DNA from: Sympetrum striolatum
Taxonomy: Eukaryota > Arthropoda > Insecta > Odonata > Libellulidae
Assembly (NCBI GenBank): GCA_947579665.1
Contig: CANPUZ010000058.1
Span: forward strand, 620,001-684,000
DNA length: 64,000 nt
Direction of reading: 5' to 3'
Shown here: one piece after another, positions 1,676-47,282 of the stretch
Layout: each line of letters opens with the position of its first letter
Position numbering within the stretch: the first letter of the stretch is position 1
Position numbers and translations under genes: made by a program
Notes under the pieces: model-generated
Database searches by the model: none
Told to the model about the DNA's origin: nothing
Seen by the model: only the letters and a program-made list of their open reading frames with translations

Positions 1676-2432
1676 ATCTATTAGTATATATAATTCCTTC
1701 TCCGTATTCATTCATATAGCTATATAAATAGGATACTAATTCACAGGCTAAACCACAAGCGTCATTGACTTGAAATTTTTACGACATATTGGCCATAACG
1801 TGTTAACCGCCAGAAAAACTGCGATTTTGATCCTCAGGGTCATGGGTTCGATTCCAGAGGGCCCCAAAGTCCCGATTTTTCCCGTTTAAAAGCATTGCTT
1901 AGATTTTCGGGAGTTTATAAAAAATACCTTCCGGATAGGTAGAGAATCAAAACTCTAGGAGCCTATATATATGGTCATGATCTATCGAAAACATAAATGA
2001 GTTTTACGGAAAATATCCTGGGTTCGATGCTAGGACGATGCAAAAATCTGCCCTTTAAAATACATTGAGGTAGTTTTTCATTATTTATTTTGATGCACTT
2101 ATCGAAATGATAGGAAGTTCCTGCTTAGAAAGAAGATGTATATTAAGAATCCGTTTAAGAAAAAAAATACATAATACCATGCTATTCCTGGGTTCGATGC
2201 CAGAGCACATTACAATTTCTCTCATAAGGAATATAAGGGAAAAGTAGGACGTCGTTTGAGACAGTTGCAGCCAATATTTTTGCTTGAATTTTTACACATA
2301 GTTAGAGATGGTGCTGTCGTGCTGCATAGTAACACCATGAAGACCCGGGTTCGATGCCGGACGGAGAAATTGCAGCGAATTTTAAGAATATTTTCAATAC
2401 TTTTTCTACTTTTACTCGTATTATACATAATT
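1676..2432 (+). mobile_element. Family A element
   Basis: Contains AGGATACTAATTCACAGGCT at about 1731 and GGTTCGA motifs at 1845, 2021, 2191 and 2348 (176, 170 and 157 bp apart), in the same module order as the copies at 8301-9487 and 38880-39697. The 3' hairpin is missing but TTTTACTCGTAT remains near 2411-2422. Not coding. Confidence 0.8.
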
Positions 2433-7085: not shown

Positions 7086-7189
7086 CCCGTAAAAATACTC
7101 GAGGCCCATGAAGATGATGATTAAAGAGGACGGATAAGTTATTATATGGATAAGTATATTTATATCATTTTCATCGCACGCAGGGTTTA

Positions 7190-8000
7190 TTTCTTTCGCA
7201 AAATTAAATTAGAAGGAATAGTCGCACTTCAACGAGACAAACACTAAAAGAAAGAAAATCAAACGAAGATTCTTATTTCTATCGTGGAATCTTACTTTCG
7301 ATTCGAATTTGCGAGAATATCGGTGAAATATACCAATATTTAGTGAAAATTCGAGGTTGTAAACAACTCATCCCCCTGACGACCGATCCCATTGTTGAAT
7401 CCGATGTGTTATCCCGTAAAAATACTCGAGGACTTTAAAAGCTGATGATTAAAGAGGACGATATATTACATGGATAACGGGAAATTCATTGTAAGAAGGT
7501 AACCAGCAATTGCAGGTACGTAATTACAGTCAGGAGATTACCATCTCATGGATGAGGGAAGTTAGATGTCTTGTCTATATATATAAAGCAGAAATTTTGT
7601 GGGTTTGTCTTGGATTGGAGTCCAAACCGTTCGCCCGATTCGCTTCAAATTTTATATACGTATTCTTTGGGATTAAGAAGCAAGTACTGTGTTAATTTAA
7701 TTCGACAAGTTTGCTGGGTTCGAACCAAGATCGCTCAGATAGATTTCCTTAAGAAATGCATGTAAACTTTACTTTCATCGGTTGCTGGCTTTTTTTCTAT
7801 TGAAGAATTAAATTAGAAGGAATTGTCTTAAAGAGTCGAGACAAGCACCAAAAGAAAGAAAATCAAATGAAGATTCTTATAATGGTCGTGGAATACTTTT
7901 TTCGAGTCCAAATTACGAGAATTTCGACAAAATACGCGAAATATTTCGATAAATTTGTGTTCGTAAACAACCCGTCCCCCTGACGACCAATGCGATTGTT
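7190..8000 (+). repeat. Family B repeat, two units in tandem
   Basis: Contains AATTAAATTAGAAGGAAT, GAAAGAAAATCAAA, TCGTGGAAT and CCCCCTGACGACC twice, joined by a head segment with TTGGATTGGAGTCCAAACCG and GGGTTCGAACCAAGATCGCT (about 7711). The GGGTTCGAACC core resembles an RNA polymerase III B box, but no A box or tRNA fold is visible. Confidence 0.8.
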
Positions 8001-8300
8001 GAATGGTGTGAATATGGATTATGGTGGCACATAAAAGGGAATCCATGTGGTCGATTGCACAATCGTAAACTTGACTTGCGTACACGAGCGGAAAGTAAGT
8101 TGTTGTCGTGCACGGCTCCCGGTGCTCACGTGACATTCACGAGAGATCACGATCCGATCCGCGAGGAGCAAATATAGAAAAGTTTGACAAATATTTATAA
8201 AACCGTTTTATACTTTAATTAATCGGGAATCATTTTTCATTGACCACCGAGGAAGACATAGCTGTTTCATTATAAGTATACCTAGCTATTAGTGCATTAT
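8001..8300. other. Unassigned sequence
   Basis: No coding region or recognisable element seen. Confidence 0.3.
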
Positions 8301-9487
8301 TATCTATTAGTATATATGATTCCTTCCCGGGTTCATTCATATCTATTATATATAGATGCTTATCCGGATTCACTCATGATATACCCAGATACCCAGATAC
8401 CCAGATAGGATACTAATTCACAGGCTAAACTACTGGCGTCATTGACTCGAAATTTTTACCACGTATTGGCCATAACGTGAAATCCCCAGGAAAAAAGCGA
8501 CTTTGATCCTCAGTGTCATAGGTTCGATTCCAGAGGGGCCCAAAGTCCCGATTTTTCCCGTTTAAATGCATTACCGTGATTTTCGGGAATAAAAAAAATA
8601 CTTTCCGGATAGGTAGAGAAATAAAACTCAAGGAGCCTATATATATGGTAATGATCTATCGAAATCATAAATGAGTTTTACGGAAAATATCCTAAGTTCG
8701 ATGCTAGGTCGAGGCAAAAATCGGCCGTTTAAAAAGCATTGTGGCGATTTTTATGATTTGTTTTGGACCCTTTCCCGATGGCATGGATACTTGAAATTCG
8801 GCATGAGGTTGGAGATCATAAATTTATTTCATAATCAAATTTTTTGTATTCGCTGATGGTCCTTGGTTCGATCCCAGAGGGCCATTTACATTCCTCAATG
8901 CATTTCTTATGGAGAAAACGGAGACAAATTTTAGGTACTTCCCGGCATGATATCGATTTCAAACTTTGCACAAAATAAGATCAAGTCCTTTAAAATCATA
9001 TTGTGCATTCACAGCGTAAATATATTTCCTGGGTTCGACACCAGGCGTCTCTTATATCAGTAGTTGATCCGATTTTTAATAATTATTTTGAGCCCTATCC
9101 CAATAATATAGAAACTTGAAATTCGGCAAATAGATAGAGATCATAATTAACTTTCATGAACATGTTTTAGATTTCCAAGATCGTCCTTGGTTCGAATCCA
9201 GAGCGCCATTTACATTCCTGAAAAGTAGAATGTCGTTTGAGGCAGTTGTAGCCAATATTTCTGCTTGAATTTTCACACAGAGTAAGAGATGGTGATTTTC
9301 TGTTGTGCTACATAGTAAGCTTACCTGGAAGACCCGGGTTCGATGCCAGACCATTAAATTGCAGCGAATTTTAAGAATATTTTCAATACCTTTTTTTTTT
9401 TTCTTTTGAGGGCCGTCCCGATATGATGCCGACATGAAATTATTGTTGTCGATCTGCTTGCAGTATGCAAGCTACATTTTACTCGTA
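8301..9487 (+). mobile_element. Family A array, six modules and 3' hairpin
   Basis: GGTTCGA motifs or close variants start at 8521, about 8695 (decayed), 8865, 9032, 9188 and 9337, giving spacings of 149-174 bp. The array ends with a perfect 7-bp-stem hairpin, GCTTGCAGTATGCAAGC (9456-9472), then TACATTTTACTCGTA. The next family A copy follows directly, head to tail. Confidence 0.85.
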
Positions 9488-9494
9488 TATATAT

Positions 9495-10145
9495 ATAGAT
9501 AGATTGGATACTAATTCACAGGCTGAACCACAAGCGTCATTGACTTGAAATTTTTACAGCGTATAGGCCCCAACGTAAAACCCCCAGGATAAGTGAGACA
9601 TCGATCATTCTGAGCATGGGTTCGATCCCAGAGGGCCCCAGAATCCGGATTTTCCCCATTTAAATGCATTGCTCTGATTTTCGGGAATTTCTAAAAAAAT
9701 ACCTTCCGAATAGGTAGAGAATCAAAACTCTAGGAGCCTATACATATGGTCATAATCTATCGATAACATAAATGACTTTCACTGAAGATATCCTGGGTTC
9801 GATGCTAGGACGATGCAAATATCTGCCCTTTAAAATACATTGAGGTAGTTTTCCATTTTTTATATTGATGCACTTATCGAAATGATAGGAAGTTCCTGCT
9901 TAGACAGAAGACGTATTTTAAGACTCTGTTCAAGGAAAAATATAGATAAGACGGAACTGTTCCTGGGTTCGATGCAAGAGCACATTACAATTTCTCTCAT
10001 AAGGAATACAAGGGAAAAGTAGGACGTCGTTTGAGGCAGTTGCAGCCAATATTTCTGCTTGAATTTTCACACATAATTAGAGATGGTGATCTTACTCAAA
10101 ATTAAACCATTTGCTTGCCATATGAAAGCAGCATTTCATTCGTAT
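9495..10145 (+). mobile_element. Family A array, second tandem copy
   Basis: Starts GGATACTAATTCACAGGCTG right after the previous copy; GGTTCGA motifs at 9619, 9795 and 9966 (176 and 171 bp apart). The end at 10113-10145 holds a decayed hairpin (GCTTGCCATATGAAAGC) and GCATTTCATTCGTA. Confidence 0.8.
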
Positions 10146-10500
10146 GTAATACAAGAACTATTTCGATAAGTGCATCTAAATCAATAATGAAAACTACCTC
10201 AATGTATTTCAAATGGGGGACATATTTACCGCCTGGCTTCGAACCCGGGTCTTTCTGGCAATACTTTCTATGCAGCACCACAGAAGATCGCCATTTTTAA
10301 TGTCTATGATTCGAAATTTTTACGATATACTGGCCATAACCGCCAGAAAAATATTCGATTTTGAACCTCAGTATCATGGGTTCGATGCCAGATGGCCCCA
10401 CTAGTCACAATTTTCTCCATAAAGATACATTGCGGGCATTTTCGAAAACTATTTTGAGGCACTTTCTGGCAAAGCAGAGAGTTGAAATTCGAGAAATCGC
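10146..10500 (+). repeat. Family A fragment
   Basis: A partial module in mixed order with GAACCCGGGTC (reversed motif, near 10240) and GGTTCGATGCCAG at 10379. Truncated at the LINE 3' end near 10520. Confidence 0.65.
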
Positions 10501-10523
10501 TATAGATTTAAATTTAGATATAT

Positions 10524-11245
10524 ACCCCGCGAGCCGCCGGAGGCGTACGGCAGGGGGTGTAATACACCACCATCATTCATTCCTCCCTATTAGCATCTCT
10601 AATAGCCTGGGGAAAAAACGACCAAAAGTAATTATCCGTCCTTGCGATTACTTCCCTATAACGCTTTGTCGAAGCCTCTCGGAGATCGCTCTTTACTGGC
10701 ACTAACATTTCACTTACTTCGTCTATAAATTCCCTGAACGAATGAACTTTTCGAATGAAGTTTCCGACGATATTCTTCTCATCTGTAGTGAATTCCAACC
10801 GAGGGACTCTATCATAACGCTGCTATCAAACCTGAAATCCAAATCTTCGCTGGACCATCTCTAAATCTGAGGCTACGTCCTCCCAAACCGCACAGCAGTA
10901 TTCTAGACTCAGACGAATAAGAGAAGCTATTTCTTTGACTCTCTTTCCTCTCAACGTAGTTAATCTTTGCATTCTATTCGCTTTTCCTATCGCATCTCGA
11001 ATACGATCTCTAAAAGATAAGTTATTGCTAAACGTGACTCCTAGGTATTTGTTGTCGTGCACTAACTCTAATGGATGCCCTGAGATTTGGTACTGCGCGG
11101 GAATTATGTTTGTGGAGCGCGTAAAACTCATGGCAACGCATTTATTTATGTTTAAATCCAGCTGACAATCTTTACAGCATCCTGATATTACCTCCAGGTC
11201 GTTTTTAAGTACATTATAATCGTTTTCAGACAAAATCTCTCTGTA
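10524..11245 (-). mobile_element. 5'-truncated L2/CR1-like LINE
   Basis: The minus strand encodes the C-terminal part of a reverse transcriptase ORF: LDLNINKCVAMSFTRSTN, YQISGHPLEL, NKYLGVTFSNNLSF, LSLEYCCAVWEDVASDLEMV-like, then, in a shifted frame, DNYFWSFFPQAIRDAN near the end. The catalytic FADD box is not present, because the copy is truncated upstream. The 3' end follows within 60 bp of the last codons with the CCCTGCC...GGGG hairpin (10524-10558). The frame is broken near 10810, so it is dead. Confidence 0.88.
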
Positions 11246-11274
11246 AAAATATATTTATATAGCTATAGACCGTG

Positions 11275-12140
11275 CATAACCGACGTAAACCATAAAGCCA
11301 TCTTCCAGGATTATCCTTGGTTCGATGCTAGGTCAGGGCAAATATTCTCGCTTTTAAAATGCATTGCGGCGATTTTTAAGATGTTTTTTAAATCACTTCC
11401 CGATAAGATGCAAGCAAGAAACTTTGCGTGTGGATAGAGATCATACATAAATTTAATAAACGTTGTTTAACGTTTCCGTGATGGTCCTTGGTTCGATCCC
11501 AGAGAGCCACTTACATTCCTCAATGCATTTCTTATGGAGATAACGGAAACGAATTTTAGGTACTTCCCGGCATGATATCGACTTCAAACTTTGTATGATA
11601 TTAGATCAAGTCCTAACAAATCAAACTGTGCATTCACAGCTATCAATGTGTCCTGGGTTCGACACCAGGCGTCTCTACAATCAGTAACTGATCCGATTTT
11701 TAAGAATTTTTTTGAACCCCTTCCCAATAATATTGAAACTTGAAATTCGGCATATGGATAGAGATCATAGATACATTTTAAAAACATGTTTTAGATTTCC
11801 TTGATCGTCCTTGGTTCGATCCCAGAAAGCCATTTTCATTACCCTATGCATTTCGGATGGGGATAATGGAGTCTTATTTCAGGACCTTCCCGGTATGATA
11901 TGGACTTCAAACTTTGCATTAATTAAGATTAGGTCCTAACAAGTTATTGTGCCTATTCGCATCTTCCAATAGGTACTGGGTTCAACACCAGGCGTTTACA
12001 AAAATTAGAAATTCCCACGATGTTTAAGATTTTTTCAAAATCTCCTACCCGATAACATTGAAACTTAAAACTTTGCGTTTGTGAATAAATATTATAAATA
12101 GATTTCGTATGCAAGCAACTTTTAATCGTGCAACGAATAG
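11275..12140 (+). mobile_element. Family A array, five modules
   Basis: B-box-like motifs at 11319, 11490, 11656, 11813 and 11979 (decayed GGTTCAA), spaced 157-171 bp. Module order matches 8695-9188. A decayed end TATGCAAGCAACTTTTAATC is near 12109. Confidence 0.8.
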
Positions 12141-12689: not shown

Positions 12690-12985
12690 GATTCAACAAT
12701 GGGCTTGGTTGTCGAGCGTTGTGTACGACCCCTAAATTTCAAGAAATTTACGTTTATTTTTACTGAATTCTCGAAATTTCGACTCGAATACGATATTCCA
12801 CGACCGAAATAAGAATCGTTATTCAATTTCCTTTCTTTTGGTACTAATCTCGATTTCGTACGACCATTATTTCTGATTTAATTTCGCGAAAGAAAAAATG
12901 TCTGCAATCGATCAAAACGGACTTTACGTGCATTTCTTATGCGAGAGACGATTCGAGTCGTCCGGAGTCGAACCAAGGATACTCT
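12690..12985 (-). repeat. Family B repeat, minus orientation
   Basis: Reverse of the family B unit: GATATTCCACGACCGAAATA, CTTTCTTTTGGTAC and GTCGAACCAAGG appear in order. Not coding. Confidence 0.75.
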
Positions 12986-13315
12986 GGACAGACTAAATAT
13001 CTATATTTAAATACTTCATTGAACCTTAACCTACTCACAAAAGTTTATAATCCTATTCTATGTCGGGAAGTGCTTGAAAATAATACTTGAAAATATCTCC
13101 TATTCATTTCTCACGGGAGTTACAGACATCGGATACATAAATATATATTCACAAAGGAGATTGTTACTAACCGAAATGCCCCTTTGATTCTCAACGGGGA
13201 AATTTACAATGATAATTACTCTTGGTACAGTCTTGATCGTAACACTTGCCTCATAATGTTTTGGTAGATAGCTTATGTCACTCTATAATTATTCCAAACT
13301 ATAAATACATGAGCT

Positions 13316-13612
13316 GGGGACTCAACAATCGCCTCGATCGTCAGGGTGATGGGTTGTTTACAATTCGAAATTTCGATAAAATATTCACGTATTTTATCAA
13401 AATGTTCGCAATTTCGAATAGTAAACTATATTCCACGACCACAATAAGAATCTTCATTCTATTATCTTTCTTTTGGTGCTTGATTCGTCTTTCTAGGACC
13501 ATTATTTCTAATTTAATTTTGCAAAAGAAATGAACCCTGCAACGAAAAAAATGATCTTACGTGTATTTCTTATGGAAACGTTTTGACTCGTCTGGGTTCG
13601 AACCATGGACTT
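13316..13612 (-). repeat. Family B repeat, minus orientation
   Basis: Contains TATTCCACGACCACAATAAG, CTTTCTTTTGGTGC and GGGTTCGAACCATGG (13594). Divergent from the neighbouring copy, so it inserted independently or is old. Confidence 0.75.
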
Positions 13613-18370: not shown

Positions 18371-18450
18371 ATTAATCTATTATATATAGATGCTTCTCCG
18401 GATTCATTCATATATATAGGGATATAGATAGATTCACAGGCTAAACCACA
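18371..18450 (+). repeat. Family A 5' end fragment
   Basis: TATATATAGATGCTTCTCCG and TTCACAGGCTAAACCACAAG, then divergent. Confidence 0.7.
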
Positions 18451-18594
18451 AGAGTTGAGGAGTGACATTAAAAAAATGAAAAAAATATGAAAGATATTTA
18501 AGTCTCGTATCGGAGAACTAACTGTAGAACTCGGTGTCGCCAGGAGACGATTGCAAGTTGTATATTTGCGGAATTTGGCTTAGAATCTTGGACT

Positions 18595-19560
18595 TATTTC
18601 CATAAGGAATACACGTAAAACTCATTTTCATCGCATGCAGGGTTTATTTCTTTCGCGAAATTAAATTAGAAGGAATAGTCGCACGTTAACGAGACAAACT
18701 CCGAAAGAAAGAAAATTGAATAAAAATTCTTATTTTGGTCGTGGAATCTTATTTTCGATTAGAATTCGCGAGAAAATTGGTAAAGTATACAAAACTTTCG
18801 TGAAAATTCGAGGCTATAAACAACTCATTCCCCCTGACGACCGATCCCATTGTTGAATCCGATGTGTTATCCCGTAAAAATACTCGAGGACTTTAAAAGC
18901 TGATGATTGAAGAGGACGATATATTAGATGGATAAGGAGAAATTTTCTGTAAGAAGGTAACCATCAATTGCAGGTACGTAATTACAGTCAGGAGATTGTG
19001 TGTCTTCGATTTTAGTACAAACCGTTTTTGTCAGATTCGCGTCAAACCTTGCGTACGTGTTTTCTGGGACCAGGAACGACGTACTGTCTCAATTTTATTC
19101 GATAATTTTGCTGGCTTCGAACCAAGATCGCTCAGATGAGTTTCCTATATATATTGGTTTGCTATATTTCCTTTGCAAGAATTAAAACAGAAAAATAGTC
19201 GTGCGGAGTCGAAACAAGAAGCAAAAGAACGGAAATTAAATGAATATTCTAATTTTGATAGTGGAATATTGTTTCCGAATCGAAATTTCGAGAATTTCGA
19301 CAAAATACGCGTGAATTATCCAAAATTGTTTGTAAACAGCCAATCCTCCTCACGATCAATGCGATTGCTGAGCCGAGCTCATGAATTTTCCTGTACAGTA
19401 AGAATAGCTTGGGATTTTAGACTGTATTCTAAAGGGAATTCACGCATTGCACGACCGGCAACTTTAGAATTTAATCTACTTCTATATTCCCCAATTAAGA
19501 ATCAACTGGCGCTTCAGCTAGTAATCTGTAATACTAAAATCCTTAGTCAGTGAGTGCGTA
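18595..19560 (+). repeat. Family B repeats in tandem, including an empty-site relative of the Harbinger insertion
   Basis: One full unit (18595-18990), a head with GGCTTCGAACCAAGATCGCT (about 19111), then a second unit through 19560. The tail at about 19411-19490 (GGGATTTTAG, AAAGGGAATTCACGCATTGC, TCTACTTCTATATTCCC) matches the two flanks of the Harbinger element at 23460-27577 joined together. Confidence 0.8.
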
Positions 19561-19664
19561 CGTCACAGCTATAGGCGTCCTAACTACTGGTCTGAAGTCG
19601 ACCAAATTTGTCACACGCATTCCCCAGGTCCCGAAGCTGCCCATGAGTATAAAATTCATTCATT

Positions 19665-20165
19665 CAGTTCTGCTGGGTTCGAACCAGGACGACCAAGATA
19701 GATTTCCATAAGGATTGCACGTAAATCTCTTTTTCATCGCAAGCAGGGTTTGTTTCATTCGCAGAATTAAATTAGTAACGGAAGTCGTACTAAGTAGAGA
19801 CGAGCACCGAAAGAAAGGAAATTGAACGAAGATTCTTATTTCGGTCGTGGAATATCGCATTCGATTCGAATTTGCGAGAACAGCGATGAAATAAACGGAA
19901 AATCCGGGAAAATTTGAGGTTGTAAACAAAAAATTGCCCCTTGACGACCAAAGTGATTGTTGAATCAAAACGTGAGATTTATATAAAACTTCAGCCTGCG
20001 TGTGTTTGTGGCCGCAAAACTCGAGAACCACTCGGTCGATTGACTTGAAATTAAAACGCAACGTTGCATTCATATACGAGAGTGTTTCTATCGTAAAAAA
20101 GTTGACATTTCGTCCTCGGTTCGATCCCAGACGAGTCAAACTTATTCCGTAAGAAATGCACGTAA
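19665..20165 (+). repeat. Family B repeat with a variant head
   Basis: GGGTTCGAACCAGGACGACC at 19676 and GGTTCGATCCCAGACGAGTC at 20119, with the usual body between. The final head (19998-20165) matches 46280-46480. Confidence 0.8.
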
Positions 20166-27577: not shown

Positions 27578-28230
27578 ATTGCATTGACCGACACCTTGAA
27601 TTTGATCCACTTCTATATTCCTATTAGAGGATAAAACGGGCACTTCTGCTAGTATATATATAAAATCGAAATTCCGTGGGTGTGTTTGTCTTGGATTGGA
27701 GGCCACACCGTTCCTCCGATTCGCTTGTAACTTTATTATAGACGTGTCCTCTGCAACCTGGAAGGAATCGCTGTCGCCTCTTTATTCCACAATTTCACGG
27801 GGTTCGAACCCAGGTCGCTCAGATAGATTTCCATATGGAATACACGTAAAACACATTTTCATCGCATGCAGGGTTTGTTTCTTACGCGAAATTAAATTAG
27901 AAGGAATGGTCGCACGTTGACGAGACAAACACCGAAAGAAAGAACATCAAACGAAGATTTTTATTTCATTCGTGGATTCTTACTTTCGATTCGAATTTGC
28001 GAGAATATCGGTGAAAAACACGAAAATTTAGTGAAAATTGGAGGTTGTAAACAACTCATCCCCCTGACGACCGATCCCATTGTTGAATCCGAGCTCATGT
28101 GTTATCCCGTAAAAAATACTCGAAGACTTTAAAAACTGATGATTAACGATATATTACATGGATAACGAGGAATTTTCTGTAAGAAGGTAACCAGGAATTA
28201 CAGGTACGTAATTACAGTCGGGAAGGGTAG
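27578..28230 (+). repeat. Family B repeat, right part after Harbinger plus next unit
   Basis: ATTGCATTGACCGACACC continues the interrupted unit; the next head carries TTGGATTGGAGGCCACACCG and GGGGTTCGAACCCAGGTCGC (27800), and a full body follows. Confidence 0.8.
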
Positions 28231-29224
28231 ATAACTAGCTCACTTATGAAGTTAAATGTCTTGTCTCGTATATTTAAAGCAGAAATCTGTACGTTCCCAG
28301 ATCGCAGGTGAATATTTGCCTTGGCAAGAGTCTACGCGATCAGACATTTGAGAAATTACGACTTTTAATTCCCAACTGCCTTTTTCTTGCCTCCCCTAAT
28401 GCAATTCCGTCTTTCTTTTGTCCTCCTCAGTTATGACGTCATCCCTCACCTTTGCGACCTCATTCCCTTATTAACTCTTCATCTCCTCTTTTCTCTTCAT
28501 CTTTGCATTTTTTAACGTAAATAACCGCTAATTTTGTCGTCCATAGCCGTTTTAGCAGCTAAACATATCGTTAGTCGTTTCGTTTAGCTGTTTTAATACC
28601 ATAGTTACCATCTCTCTGTTATTAAGCGTCAGGTTCATACGCCGGTCGATACGTCATACCCCCTCTGAAATGCGCTGTCTATTTTTGGGGGATGAGGTAT
28701 ACCAGGATAGATGAGGAGTGAGGTATTGGTTTTCCTTTTTCGACAATGAAAAGAATTTACGAGTTATGTATGATCCTCGAGCCCATTTTGGAAGATATCC
28801 TGTGTTAGTAGAATCTAGTCGTAGTAAACAACCAGTCCCCGTGACGACCAATTTTATTGTTGAGCCTAGCTCATGCGTTTTCCCGAAGCAATTTAATACG
28901 ATTTCCAGCAACTTTGAAATAGAAAAGTGACTGTACTTATTTTATTGATCTTTTTTAGTTTTCGTGTTTTTTTATTGTCTATTTACTATAATTACTGCTT
29001 CATTATTTATAGGAAATCATGGTTTTGGTCAGTGTTCGTTGATTTGAGATGTTTGTCGTCGTATTTTATAATCATCACCGTGGGGTATGCATTTATACGA
29101 GTTACAGTTCTTATCACTTGATTTTTCGAAAATATTTTTAAGCAACTTCCCCATGAGATAGAGAGCTCAAAATCACGGAGGTCCTTCAAGAGACGCTATT
29201 ATATATTATCAATCATAGAAATCC
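28231..29224. other. Mostly unassigned; decayed family B piece
   Basis: Between about 28690 and 28900 a diverged family B piece is visible (AACAACCAGTCCCCGTGACG). The rest shows only short open frames without support. Confidence 0.4.
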
Positions 29225-29880
29225 CACCAAGTGTGCTTGAATTCGACGCCAGGTGGGTGCAAAATTCACCCTTTGCAATAAATTGCGGAGATTTTTAAGA
29301 TTATTTTAAAATCCTTTACCGATAACATGGAAATGTGAAACTTGGCATGTGAATACAGATCATAAATACAATTAATATACGCTGTTAAATGTTTCCCTGA
29401 TCGTCCTTGGTTCGAACCCAGAGAGCCGTTTACATTGCCCTATGCTTTTATATAGTGATAACAAGGTCTTCATTTTGGCCCTTCCCGGTATGATATCGAC
29501 TTCAAAACTTGAAATAAATAAGTCTTATTCCCACCAGGGCGTTATATGTATATATATTTTCCAAAAATGTCCTGGGTTCGAGACCAGTTTCTCTACCTTT
29601 TGAAATGTACCGCGGTAATTTTCATTTTTTTAACGATTCATTACGAAAAAGGTGAAAATTTTACGTCCATGGGTGAGTACAGAAGAAATGGGTGCTTCCC
29701 ACTTATAGTTCATTCTTACCTTATGATCATTGGTTCGACGCTGGGGCACAATTCGTATTATACCGTATATTTCAAGTGGGGAGCACAGAATTAGGTTCGG
29801 CGACCCTCCCGACGTGATATCGACTTCAAATTCGCTTCTTCAATACGCTTTCAGAATGCAAGCAACTTTTACTAGTAATA
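29225..29880 (+). mobile_element. Family A array
   Basis: B-box-like motifs at about 29241 (decayed), 29408, 29574 and 29731, spaced 157-167 bp; end with GCTTTCAGAATGCAAGC (29847-29863) and ACTTTTACTAGTA. Confidence 0.8.

Positions 29881-29949: not shown

Positions 29950-30004
<55 letters not shown>
29950..30004. repeat. (TA)n microsatellite
   Basis: About 27 TA dinucleotides without interruption at the junction of two family A copies. Confidence 0.95.
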
Positions 30005-30007
<3 letters not shown>

Positions 30008-30019
30008 AATGGATCCGGA

Positions 30020-30850
30020 GAAGGAATTACATATAATAGGATGATGCAAAAATCTGCCTTTTAAAATGCATTGAAGTAGTTCTTCATTATTTTTTTATGC
30101 ACTTAGCGAAATGATAGGAAGTTCTCCTTCGGCTACAAGATCTATATTAAGAATAGGTTTAAGAAGTATTTCGTTGAGACCATGCTGTTCCTGGGTTCGA
30201 TGCCAGAGCACATTACAATTTCTCTCGTTAGGAATATAAGGGAAAAGTAGGTCTTCGTTTGAGGCAGTTGCAGCCAATATTTCTGCATAAATTTTCACAC
30301 ATAGTTAGAGGTGGCAATCTTCTGTTGTGCTGCGTAGAAAGTATTACCAAATAGACCCGGGTTCGAAGCCTGGCGGTACATATATATCCCCCATTTAAAA
30401 TACATTGAGGTAGTTTTTCATTATTTTTTTTGATGCACTTATCGAAATGATAGGAAGTTCTTGCTTAGACAGAAGATGTATATTAAGACTCGGTTTAAGA
30501 GAAAAATTTAGATAAGACCCTGCTGTTCCTGGGTTCGATGCCAGAGCACATTAAAATTTCTCACATAAGTATATATATGTGAAAAGTAGGACGTAGTTTG
30601 AGGCAGTTGCAGCCAATATTTCTGCTTGAGTTTTCAAACATAATTAGAGATGGTGATGTTCTGTTGTGCTGCATAGGAAGTATCACCAGGAAGACCCGGG
30701 TTCGATGCAGGACGTATAAATTGCCGCGAATTTTAAGAATAATTTCAATCCATTTTTTTCTTTTAAGGATCCTCTTGATGTGATGCCGACTTAAAATTGG
30801 TATTATCAATATGCTTGCAGAATGCAAGCTACATTTTACTCGTATTCATA
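30020..30850 (+). mobile_element. Family A array with 3' hairpin
   Basis: GGTTCGA motifs at 30194, 30360, 30532 and 30699 (166, 172 and 167 bp apart). The order includes a repeated module type, so the copy is itself rearranged. It ends with GCTTGCAGAATGCAAGC (30813-30829), then TACATTTTACTCGTA. Confidence 0.85.
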
Positions 30851-31050
30851 TAGATAGATAGATAGGATACTAATTCACAGGCTAAACCACAAGCGTCATT
30901 GACTTGAACTTTTTACAGCGTATTGAGAATATCAATTTTCATAATTCTTTCAGTCTTTTACCGTGAAGGCAGATAATTGACACTTTGCATTCATTTATCT
31001 ATATCTATCAAACCATTTCGTTGCAGTATGCAAGCAGCATTATTCTCGTG
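30851..31050 (+). mobile_element. Family A copy, internally deleted
   Basis: Starts AGGATACTAATTCACAGGCT (30865) and reaches the 3' end TTGCAGTATGCAAGCAGCAT (31021-31040) after only about 175 bp. This solo form shows that the two ends travel together even when modules are lost. Confidence 0.75.
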
Positions 31051-33500: not shown

Positions 33501-42582
<9,082 letters not shown>

Positions 42583-42659: not shown

Positions 42660-43290
42660 GAACAAATCTATTATATATAGACGCTTCTCCGGGTATACCT
42701 AGATATATATAGGGGATCAAAATTCTAACCATGTTCCACAAGTGTCACTGACTTGAAATTTTTACGACGTACAGGCCATAACGTTTAACCAGTCGAAAAA
42801 TGGCGATTTTGAACCTCGGTGTCATGGGTTCGATTCCAGAAGGCCCCAAAGTCCCGATTTTCTCCATAAGGATACATGGTGGGGATTTTCGAAAATTTTT
42901 AAATAATACTTCCCGGATAGGTAGAGAATTAAAATTGTAGGAGCTTATAGATATCGTCTAGAACTATCGAAAACATTAATGACTTCTAATGAGGAAGTCC
43001 TGGGTTCGATGCTAGGAGGATGCAAAAATCACGTATTTAAAATACATGGGGATAGTTTTTCATTATTTTTTTTGATGCACTTATCGGAATGTAAGGAAGT
43101 TCTAGCTCAGCTAGAAGATATATATTAAGAATCTGTTTAAGAAAAAAATTACGTAAGACCATGCTGTTCCTGGGTTCGATGCCAGAGCACATTAAAACTT
43201 CTCTTATAAGGTATATAAGGGAAAAGTAGGACGTCGTTTGAGGCAGTTACAGCCAATATTTCTGCCTGAATTTCACACATAGTTAGAGAA
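42660..43290 (+). mobile_element. Family A element, 3'-truncated
   Basis: Starts CTATTATATATAGACGCTTC; GGTTCGA motifs at 42827, 43003 and 43173 (176 and 170 bp apart). Stops near 43285 before the last module and hairpin. It lies just upstream of the first visible Sp8-like exon, in the presumed first intron. Confidence 0.8.
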
Positions 43291-45114: not shown

Positions 45115-45740
45115 TATAAAATCGAAATTCTGATGGGGTGTTTGACTTAGATTGGAGGCAACACCGTTCGTCCGATTTGCTACATACTTTATATACGTGT
45201 CCTCTGCGACCTGGAAGGAATCGCTGTCGCCTCTTTGTTCCACAATTTCACGGGGTTCGAACCCAGGTCGCTCAGATAGTTTTCCATGAAGAACACACGT
45301 AAAACCCATTTTCATCGCATGCAGGGTTTATTTCTTTCGCGAAATTAAATTAGAAGGAATAGTCGCATTTTAACGAGACAAACACTAAAAGAAAGAAAAT
45401 CGAATGGAGTATCTTATTACATTCGTGGAATCTTACTTTCGATTCGAATTTTCGAGAATATCGGTGAAATATACGAAAATTTAGTGAAAATTCGAGGTTG
45501 TAAACAACTCATCCCCCTGACGACCGATCCCATTGTTGAATCCGATGTGTTATCCCGTAAAAATACTCGAGGACTTTAGAAGCTGATGATTTAAGAGGAC
45601 GATATATTACATGGATAACGAGAAATTCTTTGTAAGAAGGTAACCAGCAATTGCAGGTACGTAATGACAGTCAGGATGGGTAGACTACCACTGATGAGGG
45701 AAGTCATAGATGTCTCCTCTGTATGTATACTAAAATTTTA
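45115..45740 (+). repeat. Family B repeat, full unit
   Basis: Head with TTAGATTGGAGGCAACACCG, GGGGTTCGAACCCAGGTCGC (45253), body, and the tail GGTAACCAGCAATTGCAGGT. One of the most complete copies. Confidence 0.85.
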
Positions 45741-46279
45741 CGTATTCAAACTGTTCGTGTCAGAAAAATCCAAATTTATTTTCAAATGCACCTTCATGTG
45801 CCTATCGAATCAAATAAGGAATTGTGTTTCCTCTGAACCCTTTCGTTCCTTCCAGGCCAAGAGTAATTTCGTATTTGAAACAAGCTCGAATCGCCTCCAT
45901 TACAACCGTCGCATAACGCGATAACAACTCCTCTTGGCGATAAAAGGGAAAAACTCGTATAAATGGTAATTCTGAAAAGTCGATTGGACGCTTCGAAATG
46001 ACTGTTTGCCTTTCGAATGTTTAATCTCCTATTGGACTGCTCTTTTACGCGGAACTGCATGGGGAAGGGAAGGTGTTGTCCATTGCGACAGTATCGTCAT
46101 GGTGACAATGCAGTAACTGTATTACTATGAGTGTGGATGAGTACAGTACACCTTCAATAATGACCATGGTAACCATGACTATTTTTTTTTAATCCAACAT
46201 AATTCGCAGTTTTTGAATGCGAATAGTTGTAAAAGATAACAAAAATATTATTAAAAATGCACAAAATATCATACGTACA
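45741..46279. repeat. Low-copy repeat shared with about 50700-50830
   Basis: Around 46020-46180, words such as GGGAAGGGAAGGTGTTGTCC and CATGGTGACAATGCAGTAA resemble GAAGGGAAGGTATTGTCC and its surroundings at 50750-50830. Otherwise unassigned. Confidence 0.5.
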
Positions 46280-46700
46280 AAATTTCAGCCTGCGTATGTT
46301 TGTGGCCGCAAAACTCGAAAAATACTCGTTCCATGGACTTCAAATTTTAACGCAACGTTGCATTCAAATACGAGAGTGTTTCTAACGTAAAAAATGTCGT
46401 CATTTCGTCCTCGGTTCGATCCCAGACGAGTCAAAGCATTTCCATAAGAAATACACGTAGAGTCCATTTTTGCAGCTGCAGGCATCGCTTCTTTTGCAAA
46501 ATTAAATTAGAAAGAATGGTCGCACGACGTTGAAACAAGCACCAAAAGAAAGGAAAATGAATGAAGAATCTTAATTTGGTCGTGGATTATTGTTTTCGAA
46601 TTGAATTATCGAGATTTTACGCGAAATACGCGAGATATTTGTGAAATTTTGAGGGTGTAAACAACCGGTCCCCCTGACGACAAATGCCATTGTTGAATCC
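46280..46700 (+). repeat. Family B repeat with variant head
   Basis: TTCAGCCTGCGTATGTTTGT and GGTTCGATCCCAGACGAGTC (46414) match 19998-20165, followed by the usual body. Confidence 0.8.
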
Positions 46701-47282
46701 TGCATTTAGGCCAATTTAGAGTTAAGAGGAAGAGAGACGCTGTTGATTCCGTTCACATTGACGTGCATAATCAATCGTTGGAAGCGATTTAAATTATCTT
46801 TTTTTAGAAACACGAAATGTGAGTTAATTTGATACCGAATGTTGTATTAATTTGTTTTATTTATGATTTAATAAGCGATTTGAATAACCTAAACCACAGC
46901 GAAGCGTGGTCGGGTTAAGTTAGTAATAGATAAAGCATTCTGCCACTCGGGATGCAGTCAGAGGCTGATCTGGAGGTTGCAAATACAGTCCATGGTAGAC
47001 GGATCATAATTGTGGCATACAATGCTCAAACTGTGCGAAACACAATAAACATTAATGAAATAGACCATCCAATCAACAAATAAGATGCTATGCTACAAGG
47101 TACAATAATTAAACAATCCATTGCTTTCAGTAAAATAATTGTTAATCAAAACGTAGAATGTTTAGTTATAAATAGCTTTATAAGCAACAATATACATTCT
47201 CATACACATCACAGCGACATAACGTAAAAATTCATTATTCCAATAAGTTAAAACTCGTTTTACTTTAACCAACTCTTTTATT
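46701..47282. other. Unassigned sequence
   Basis: No supported gene or named element. Confidence 0.35.

What the first reader, a model, noticed from the sequence alone, without database searches (positions are those of the whole stretch)
8301..12140. Family A: arrays of ~150-180-bp modules, each with a tRNA-like B-box word, closed by a conserved hairpin
Across at least eight places (1.7, 8.3, 9.5, 11.3, 29.2, 30.0, 38.9 and 42.7 kb), GGTTCGA words recur every 149-176 bp in a fixed order of module types. Copies start with TATATATAGATGCTTC/ATACTAATTCACAGGCT and several end with GCTTGCAGNATGCAAGC, then ATTTTACTCGTA. A palindromic start, a central array of ~160-bp modules and a 3' hairpin resemble nonautonomous Helentron-type (HINE/DINE-1-like) rolling-circle elements as described in other animals. 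The B-box word in every module is not part of that description and is the new element here.
Basis: partly seen in the sequence, partly recalled or inferred. Interest (0 to 1): 0.75.

Follow-up and report, generated by a model that had tools for sequence, protein, structure and literature searches.

The report
Rolling-circle transposon family with tRNA-like words
These repeats are copies of a very abundant jumping-gene family that most likely copies itself by rolling-circle replication, and each of its internal building blocks keeps the same short word that tRNA genes use as a promoter signal, for a reason not yet known.

Summary
GGTTCGA occurs 56 times against 6.85 expected; 33 lie in family A and 19 in a second family. 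Family A has precise ends, ATCTATTATATATAGAT ... GCTTGCAG-N-ATGCAAGC ... TTTTACTCG|T. The exact 3' end occurs 30,700 times in the 1.35-Gb genome, reversed control 0. In 26 copies the flanking base is T on the 5' side in 19 and on the 3' side in 26, without target duplication. Rep-helicase (PF14214) genes carry this 3' end on the same strand: the C10 copy plus 4 of 5 others read; the gene-to-module junction recurs at five places. The 5' gene-module junction was found at one place only. So family A is most likely a non-autonomous rolling-circle element, close to Helitron2/HINE, although the defining inverted repeats were not found. The word is constrained: 2 of 42 core columns vary, against 415 of 1061 elsewhere. 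No A box, tRNA or Pol III promoter was found, so what the word does is inferred. Verdict: new variant of a known kind.

The parts
1676..2418 (+). copy c1: modules A1-A2-A3-A4, hairpin deleted
8302..8340 (+). 5' end of outer element c3, split by c2
8341..9485 (+). copy c2, complete six-module form A1-A2-M5-M6-M5/A3-A4, nested in c3
8341..8357 (+). 5' terminal palindrome ATCTATTATATATAGAT
8412..8426 (+). leader motif ACTAATTCACAGGCT
8521..8531 (+). B-box-like core of module A1
8695..8705 (+). core of module A2 (AGTTCGA)
8865..8875 (+). core of module M5
9032..9042 (+). core of module M6
9189..9199 (+). core of chimeric module M5/A3
9337..9347 (+). core of module A4
9456..9472 (+). 3' hairpin GCTTGCAGTATGCAAGC
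9477..9485 (+). 3' terminus TTTTACTCG, followed by T
9486..10142 (+). rest of outer element c3 (A1-A2-A3, imperfect hairpin 10113-10129)
10160..10362 (-). inverted A-module fragment (A4/A2 chimera)
10301..10510 (+). fragment of module A1
11247..12128 (+). copy c4, 5'-truncated: A2-M5-M6-M5-M6, half hairpin
18375..18455 (+). copy c9: 5' end only
29147..29875 (+). copy c5, M5/M6-type modules
29985..30040 (-). inverted 5' end next to c6
30037..30842 (+). copy c6: A2-A3-A4/A2-A3-A4 with hairpin
30843..31048 (+). copy c6b: leader and 3' end, no module
38881..39690 (+). copy c7: complete A1-A2-A3-A4, used as genome query
42666..43289 (+). copy c8: A1-A2-A3, 3' end lost

Best explanation
Family A is a non-autonomous transposon of the Helitron superfamily (rolling-circle; closest to Helitron2/HINE). 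A Rep-helicase made by larger elements with the same 3' end recognises the 3' hairpin and TTTTACTCG terminus and copies the element into a site usually just after a T, without duplicating it; failure to stop at the 3' end gives head-to-tail copies and arrays. Shown: ends, flanks, copy number, tandem copies, and Rep-helicase genes with this 3' end. Inferred: that this Rep-helicase moves the family, and the rolling-circle mechanism. The central modules are old, distantly related tandem repeats of about 160 bp, each holding one constrained word, typically CCTGGGTTCGATGCCAG. The word most likely acts as a repeated protein-binding site: a B-box-only TFIIIC site (about 0.35) or a site for the element's own Rep protein (about 0.3). 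A complete Pol III promoter is unlikely.
For: 3'-end pattern 15,269 + 15,431 exact matches, control 0. 26 copies: -1 T 19, +1 T 26, then A 24; a perfect target duplication of 2 or more in 2 of 26 against 0.89 expected. Nested insertions show single clean insertions. Head-to-tail copies joined at CTCG|T. PF14214: 93 matches, 104 candidates scored. C10:6994415-7005254 has A-type modules, a Rep-helicase frame of 2578 aa, A3 and A4 modules and the A 3' end on one strand. Four of five further genes end in the A 3' end, 4,489-4,635 bp from the start of the PF14214 match, against 4,481 in C10. The gene-A3 junction aligns end to end at 5 places, the query's own included. Core constraint: 2 of 42 variable columns against 415 of 1061, P 8e-7; pairwise 8 of 469 against 2593 of 10,644 in window modules, which were picked by the word or a near variant.
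Against: Terminal inverted repeats not found. The 5' gene-module junction of C10 aligned whole only to itself among 40 scored of 1089 candidates; C49 (7.11 Mb) matches from query position 290 and C27 (89.76 Mb) from 276, the latter in two pieces about 8.7 kb apart, so the 5' half of the partner is unsettled. The C10 5' end itself lacks the start of the palindrome. 1 of 5 further genes showed no A end in 901 bp (L099). Three gene copies share only about the last 120 bp, without module cores. Of the eight cores I read in the C10 element, four are exact words. The helicase matches at its C-terminus are below Pfam's cut-offs. Among 26 close copies the cores are not unusual (ranks 61 to 218 of 796 windows): constraint is visible between subfamilies, not after insertion.
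Confidence: 0.75

Rival explanations
1. Each module is a Pol III unit (SINE-like, A box plus B box), and the family spreads as a retroelement.
For: The core matches the B-box consensus as I recall it and lies on one strand of the element. TTTT runs follow the core in five of six module consensuses.
Against: No A box better than shuffles in any of six module consensuses. No tRNA in the window by ARAGORN or by Rfam at gathering scores, and no tRNA at E up to 10 in 8301-12140. Fixed ends, no target duplication, no 3' tail.
Confidence: 0.07
2. The Rep-helicase genes merely landed beside old A elements, and family A is moved by something not yet seen.
For: A elements do insert into Helitrons: one CTAGT-ended Helitron family carries a nested A element in all six copies read. 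The C10 5' junction is not shared.
Against: The gene-A3 junction is the same at five dispersed places. Three copies of another gene subfamily also end in the A terminus, same strand, at nearly the same distance.
Confidence: 0.15
3. The core is not a binding site: it stays the same because it is the exchange point where module types recombine, or by array homogenisation.
For: One chimeric module type (A4/A2, at 30360 and 10235) switches at or next to the core.
Against: The other chimera (M5/A3 at 9189) appears to switch about 30 bp downstream (read by eye; one search does not fix the point). A second family, B, keeps the same word.
Confidence: 0.25

Closest known systems
HINE / DINE-1 (non-autonomous Helentrons), PMC4067079 and PMC2374699
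   Same: Palindromic 5' end, microsatellite, central tandem repeats, 3' palindrome, T flanks, no target duplication, very high copy number.
   Different: No inverted subterminal repeats found. PMC2374699 (passages) states that DINE-1 lacks Pol III promoter consensus or tRNA similarity; here each module has a B-box-like word.
Helitron2, PMC3627910 (passages)
   Same: Hairpins at both ends, single Rep-helicase frame without a C-terminal endonuclease, no target duplication.
   Different: The 8-15 bp asymmetric inverted repeats were not found. The partner has an N-terminal Ulp1-like domain (E 5e-4, just under Pfam's cut-off; 8 of 17 relatives found bear PF02902) and 55 exact copies of a 15-aa repeat.
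Bivalve Pearl / Cg_HINE elements with about 160-bp repeats (BIV160/Cg170), PMC7492417 and PMC5139131
   Same: Central monomers of about 160 bp, conserved motifs within otherwise diverged monomers, tandem and dispersed forms.
   Different: No B-box word is mentioned in the passages read; monomer sequences were not compared here.
Canonical Helitron (Helitron1)
   Same: Rep-helicase, 3' hairpin, no target duplication.
   Different: Two Helitron families of this genome read to the end finish in CTAGT; family A ends in CTCG|T and has a 5' hairpin.

Membership tests
Helitron superfamily (rolling-circle) | Rep-helicase partner with matching terminus | tested here: met
   Met for the 3' end only: C10 plus 4 of 5 and five shared junctions; the 5' end is inconclusive.
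Helitron superfamily (rolling-circle) | No target-site duplication | tested here: met
   2 of 26 with a perfect duplication of 2 or more, 0.89 expected. Of 16 boundary settings 15 give 0-5 of 26 duplications of 3 or more; one gives 12, explained by the element's own AT and the invariant 3' T.
HINE / DINE-1 | Insertion between T and T | tested here: inconclusive
   -1 T 19 of 26, +1 T 26 of 26. Two nested cases favour the 3' T belonging to the element, so that the target would be T|A (my reading).
HINE / DINE-1 | Inverted subterminal repeats at both ends | tested here: not met
   Consensus: 914 of 1000 shuffles as good. Copies: c6b 102 and c4 226 of 2000, other five 914-1799.
HINE / DINE-1 | 3' palindrome near the end | tested here: met
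   GCTTGCAG-N-ATGCAAGC, 13-14 bp from the end in three window copies measured.
Helentron | AP endonuclease fused to the Rep-helicase C-terminus | tested here: not met
   The frame stops 25 aa after the helicase C-terminal match, itself sub-threshold; the middle of the gene was not fetched.
Helitron2 | 5' hairpin at the terminus | tested here: met
   ATCTAT-TATAT-ATAGAT.
Helitron2 | Asymmetric terminal inverted repeats of 8-15 bp | tested here: not met
   c4 has an 11-of-12 match just upstream of its hairpin, not significant.
Helitron2 | Phylogenetic clustering of the Rep-helicase with Helitron2 | not tested
   Middle of the gene not fetched; no tree was built.
Canonical Helitron | 3' CTRR end, A|T target | tested here: not met
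   Ends in CTCG; -1 is A in 1 of 26.
SINE / Pol III type 2 promoter | A box 30-40 bp upstream of the B box | tested here: not met
   Best sites 5-6 of 9 positions, matched by 218-300 of 300 shuffles.
TFIIIC-bound site | TFIIIC occupancy | not testable with these tools
   Needs chromatin immunoprecipitation.

The most novel reading that the evidence does not exclude
A rolling-circle transposon has built arrays of B-box-only TFIIIC sites, one per nucleosome-sized module, and spread perhaps 100,000 or more of them through a genome (my estimate from 30,700 ends and four to six modules in the copies read), using the Pol III factor for targeting, for chromatin boundaries or for starting its own replication.
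Probability: 0.22. Interest if true: 0.85.

Novelty: new variant of a known kind. Interest (0 to 1): 0.55.

Why it matters
Why many rolling-circle elements carry central arrays of about 160-bp repeats, and how they turn into satellites, is open. Here the ends, a likely partner, tandem arrays of complete units and a sharply constrained word inside each repeat occur together. The word gives a concrete candidate for what the repeats are for, and protein binding and small-RNA data can test it directly.

Tried and rejected
Rejected: tRNA genes or tRNA-derived SINE. A viral-contig hit for the leader motif lies in what reads as a phage gene and shares only that stretch with family A; taken as a chance match. 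No exact match to one 26-base module word in genome contigs and no relative of c7 in phages. I first took family B to be part of a Helitron because three B units follow its gene in L082 (note 2). A second copy lacks them and B also lies upstream, so that Helitron sits inside a B array; withdrawn. Note 1's statement that chimeric modules switch exactly at the core holds at most for A4/A2, and its T/T empty site is better read as T|A. The frame at 10829-11233 (-), which looked reverse-transcriptase-like, has no Pfam match. A count of 20 T at -1 became 19 once the boundary of c7 was set right. Species not identified; the 38-kb exon is an Sp8/Sp9-like gene of an animal.

Not answered: the genome-wide counts of GGTTCGANNCC (nine tries) and of the 5' end (one try); the tool was busy.
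Full report
Observation. In the 64-kb window GGTTCGA occurs 56 times, against a mean of 6.85 and a maximum of 14 in 100 dinucleotide shuffles. By position 33 lie in family A, 19 in stretches related to a second family, B, and 4 elsewhere, two of which look A-like to me. The named places are real and share long alignments. Masked-core HMMs recover six module types, A1 to A4, M5 and M6, and all but two full-length hits keep the exact word.

Ends. Thirty-nine genome copies were fetched, from the 40 scored of 12,443 first-look candidates for c7. Nearly all begin ATCTATTATATATAGATGC or a close variant and end ATTTTACTCG or a one-base variant, followed by T. Twenty-five of the 39, plus c7 of the window, entered the end statistics. 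Fourteen were dropped: nine because their flanks repeat those of a kept copy, five for tandem or unclear ends. L016 and L027 were both kept although they share a 3' flank. One search gives -1 T in 20 of 26; it had set the 5' boundary of c7 three bases too far in, and the corrected count is 19 T, 5 C, 1 A, 1 G. +1 is T in 26 and +2 is A in 24. A perfect target duplication of two or more bases occurs in 2 against 0.89 expected. Of 16 boundary settings one gives duplications of three or more in 12 of 26; it arises because the element starts AT and the 3' flank starts TAT. The seven copies with a base other than T at -1 still have T on the 3' side, which a TA duplication would not give.

Nested insertions. 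Element 8341-9485 splits an older A element: 8302-8340 and 9486-10142 join into a normal 5' region. L010 lies in an old M5/M6 array. Both read more simply as insertion between T or C and A, with the 3' T belonging to the element; the alignments are only 68-83% identical, so this is not settled. Head-to-tail pairs occur (L015, L018, L024, L038). Near the start of contig C1 seven 3' ends lie 1,074-1,278 bp apart, and three units read there are six-module elements.

Copy number. The 30-base 3' end has 15,269 + 15,431 exact matches in 1.35 Gb; the reversed pattern has none.

Partner. PF14214 gives 93 matches from 104 scored candidates. The thirty loci cut out fall into six DNA families. Two of them, read to the 3' end, finish in hairpin plus CTAGT, as canonical Helitrons do, so they are not the partner; the ends of the other four were not determined. 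The frame of 2578 aa at C10 is different: A-type leader and six modules, then 5' unique sequence, a frame with a Ulp1-like domain and 55 exact copies of a 15-aa repeat, a helicase C-terminus, 3' unique sequence, modules A3 and A4, hairpin and TTTTACTCG|T, 10,840 bp in all. The Ulp1-like and helicase C-terminal Pfam matches are below the curated cut-offs; 8 of 17 relatives of the N-terminal part bear the Ulp1 family PF02902. Bases 7000001-7003599 were not fetched. Its 5' end lacks the first part of the palindrome. Four of five other genes end in the same terminus on the same strand, 4,489, 4,618, 4,635 and 4,635 bp from the start of the PF14214 match against 4,481 in C10: L098 with the A3-A4 modules, L100, L101 and L102 with about 120 bp only; L099 showed none in 901 bp. 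The stretch running from 3' unique sequence into A3 aligns end to end at five places including its own (89-91% identity elsewhere), is split at two and partial at one; 40 of 2348 candidates were scored. Three of the four others (C47, C27, C49) lie beside a PF14214 match, C8 does not. The 5' junction of C10 aligned whole only to itself; C49 (7.11 Mb) matches from position 290 and C27 (89.76 Mb) from 276 in two pieces; 40 of 1089 candidates were scored. The partner is therefore secured by its 3' end, not by its 5' end.

Modules and word. In window alignments by type the 7-base core differs in 8 of 469 pairwise comparisons, all other columns in 2593 of 10,644; these modules had been picked by the word or a near variant, which favours the core. 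Less biased: in six aligned copies of the six-module form the core has 2 variable columns of 42, the rest 415 of 1061 (Fisher P 8e-7), with pairwise difference 1.6% against 17.9%; core columns were taken wherever at least one copy reads GGTTCGA. Masked-core HMMs over the window and fetched loci, repeats of the same flanks not removed, give the exact word in 228 of 296 full module copies: A1 43/61, A2 46/58, A3 55/74, A4 48/63, M5 25/27, M6 11/13 (my sum). Core identity is 0.951-0.989 against 0.778-0.894 elsewhere; 6/150, 6/150, 14/150, 8/145, 0/150 and 0/150 other 7-base windows are as conserved. Against this, among 26 close copies the cores rank only 61 to 218 of 796 windows. So constraint acted on source lineages, not after insertion. 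Module types are weakly related outside the core: the downstream halves of five of 15 pairs (A1-M5, A2-A4, A2-M6, A3-M5, A4-M6) beat all 300 shuffles, no upstream half does. No module has an A box better than shuffles. No tRNA is found in the window, nor at E up to 10 in 8301-12140, where only two chance-level microRNA matches appear. The extended word is gTCCTGGGTTCGATgCCAGa in family A; words outside family A, mostly family B, read CtnGGTTCGAacCCAG.

Literature. From PMC4067079 (section 5 and passages), PMC7492417 (section 6 and passages), and PMC3627910, PMC2374699 and PMC5139131 (passages): HINEs have inverted subterminal repeats, central repeats and 3' palindrome; Helitron2 has two hairpins and asymmetric inverted repeats; DINE-1 lacks Pol III promoter consensus; bivalve elements carry about 160-bp monomers, some with two conserved motifs. 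Full-text searches, of which I saw the listings: Helitron with TFIIIC (5 papers), four of five terms on TFIIIC, B box and Helitron (25 papers, 20 listed), Pearl with box B (1 paper), GGTTCGA with tandem repeat (1 paper). No title or abstract start there reports B-box words in such elements. The library lacks most subscription papers. The B-box and A-box consensus and TFIIIC preference are recalled.

Verdict. A real, very abundant rolling-circle family close to Helitron2/HINE, with a likely partner and a constrained B-box-like word per module. Membership in HINE or Helitron2 is not claimed, because a defining feature was tested and not met. What the word does is open.

Noticed in passing
window 7166-8069, 12700-13604 (-), 18600-20160, 27680-28220, 45140-46760: A second repeat family (B), copies often 512-604 bp apart, also carries GGTTCGAncCCAG; it holds 19 of the 56 words in the window and forms 1156-bp tandem units elsewhere (L082).
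   Followed up: partly
L083, L087, L090-L093: A Helitron family with CTAGT ends carries a nested A element in reverse orientation, about 120 bp after its gene, in all six copies read; L090-L093 are 99.3-99.9% and L087 98% identical to L083 there, so A elements ride on a young Helitron.
   Followed up: partly
L097 2700-3200 and L095 1-2300: The Rep-helicase frame of the C10 element contains 55 exact copies of the 15-residue repeat REAVKKYQAANPEVN, a coding minisatellite.
   Followed up: no
L088 (C1:12400-16000) and listing: Complete six-module A elements form tandem arrays of about 1.1-kb units near the start of contig C1, a satellite made of whole transposons.
   Followed up: partly
L016 against L027, L029, L030: L016 aligns to the other three at 93% from the element start through about 500 bp of 3' flank, but its 5' flank differs, as expected if replication of one copy had read through into its 3' flank.
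   Followed up: no
L082 and L085: A canonical Helitron has inserted into a family-B array, B units lying on both sides.
   Followed up: partly
window 37961-38449 (-): Exon of an Sp8/Sp9-like transcription factor, which marks the window as animal DNA.
   Followed up: partly
window 35332-36613: Long arrays of a 21-bp repeat (47.4 units at 35617-36613).
   Followed up: no
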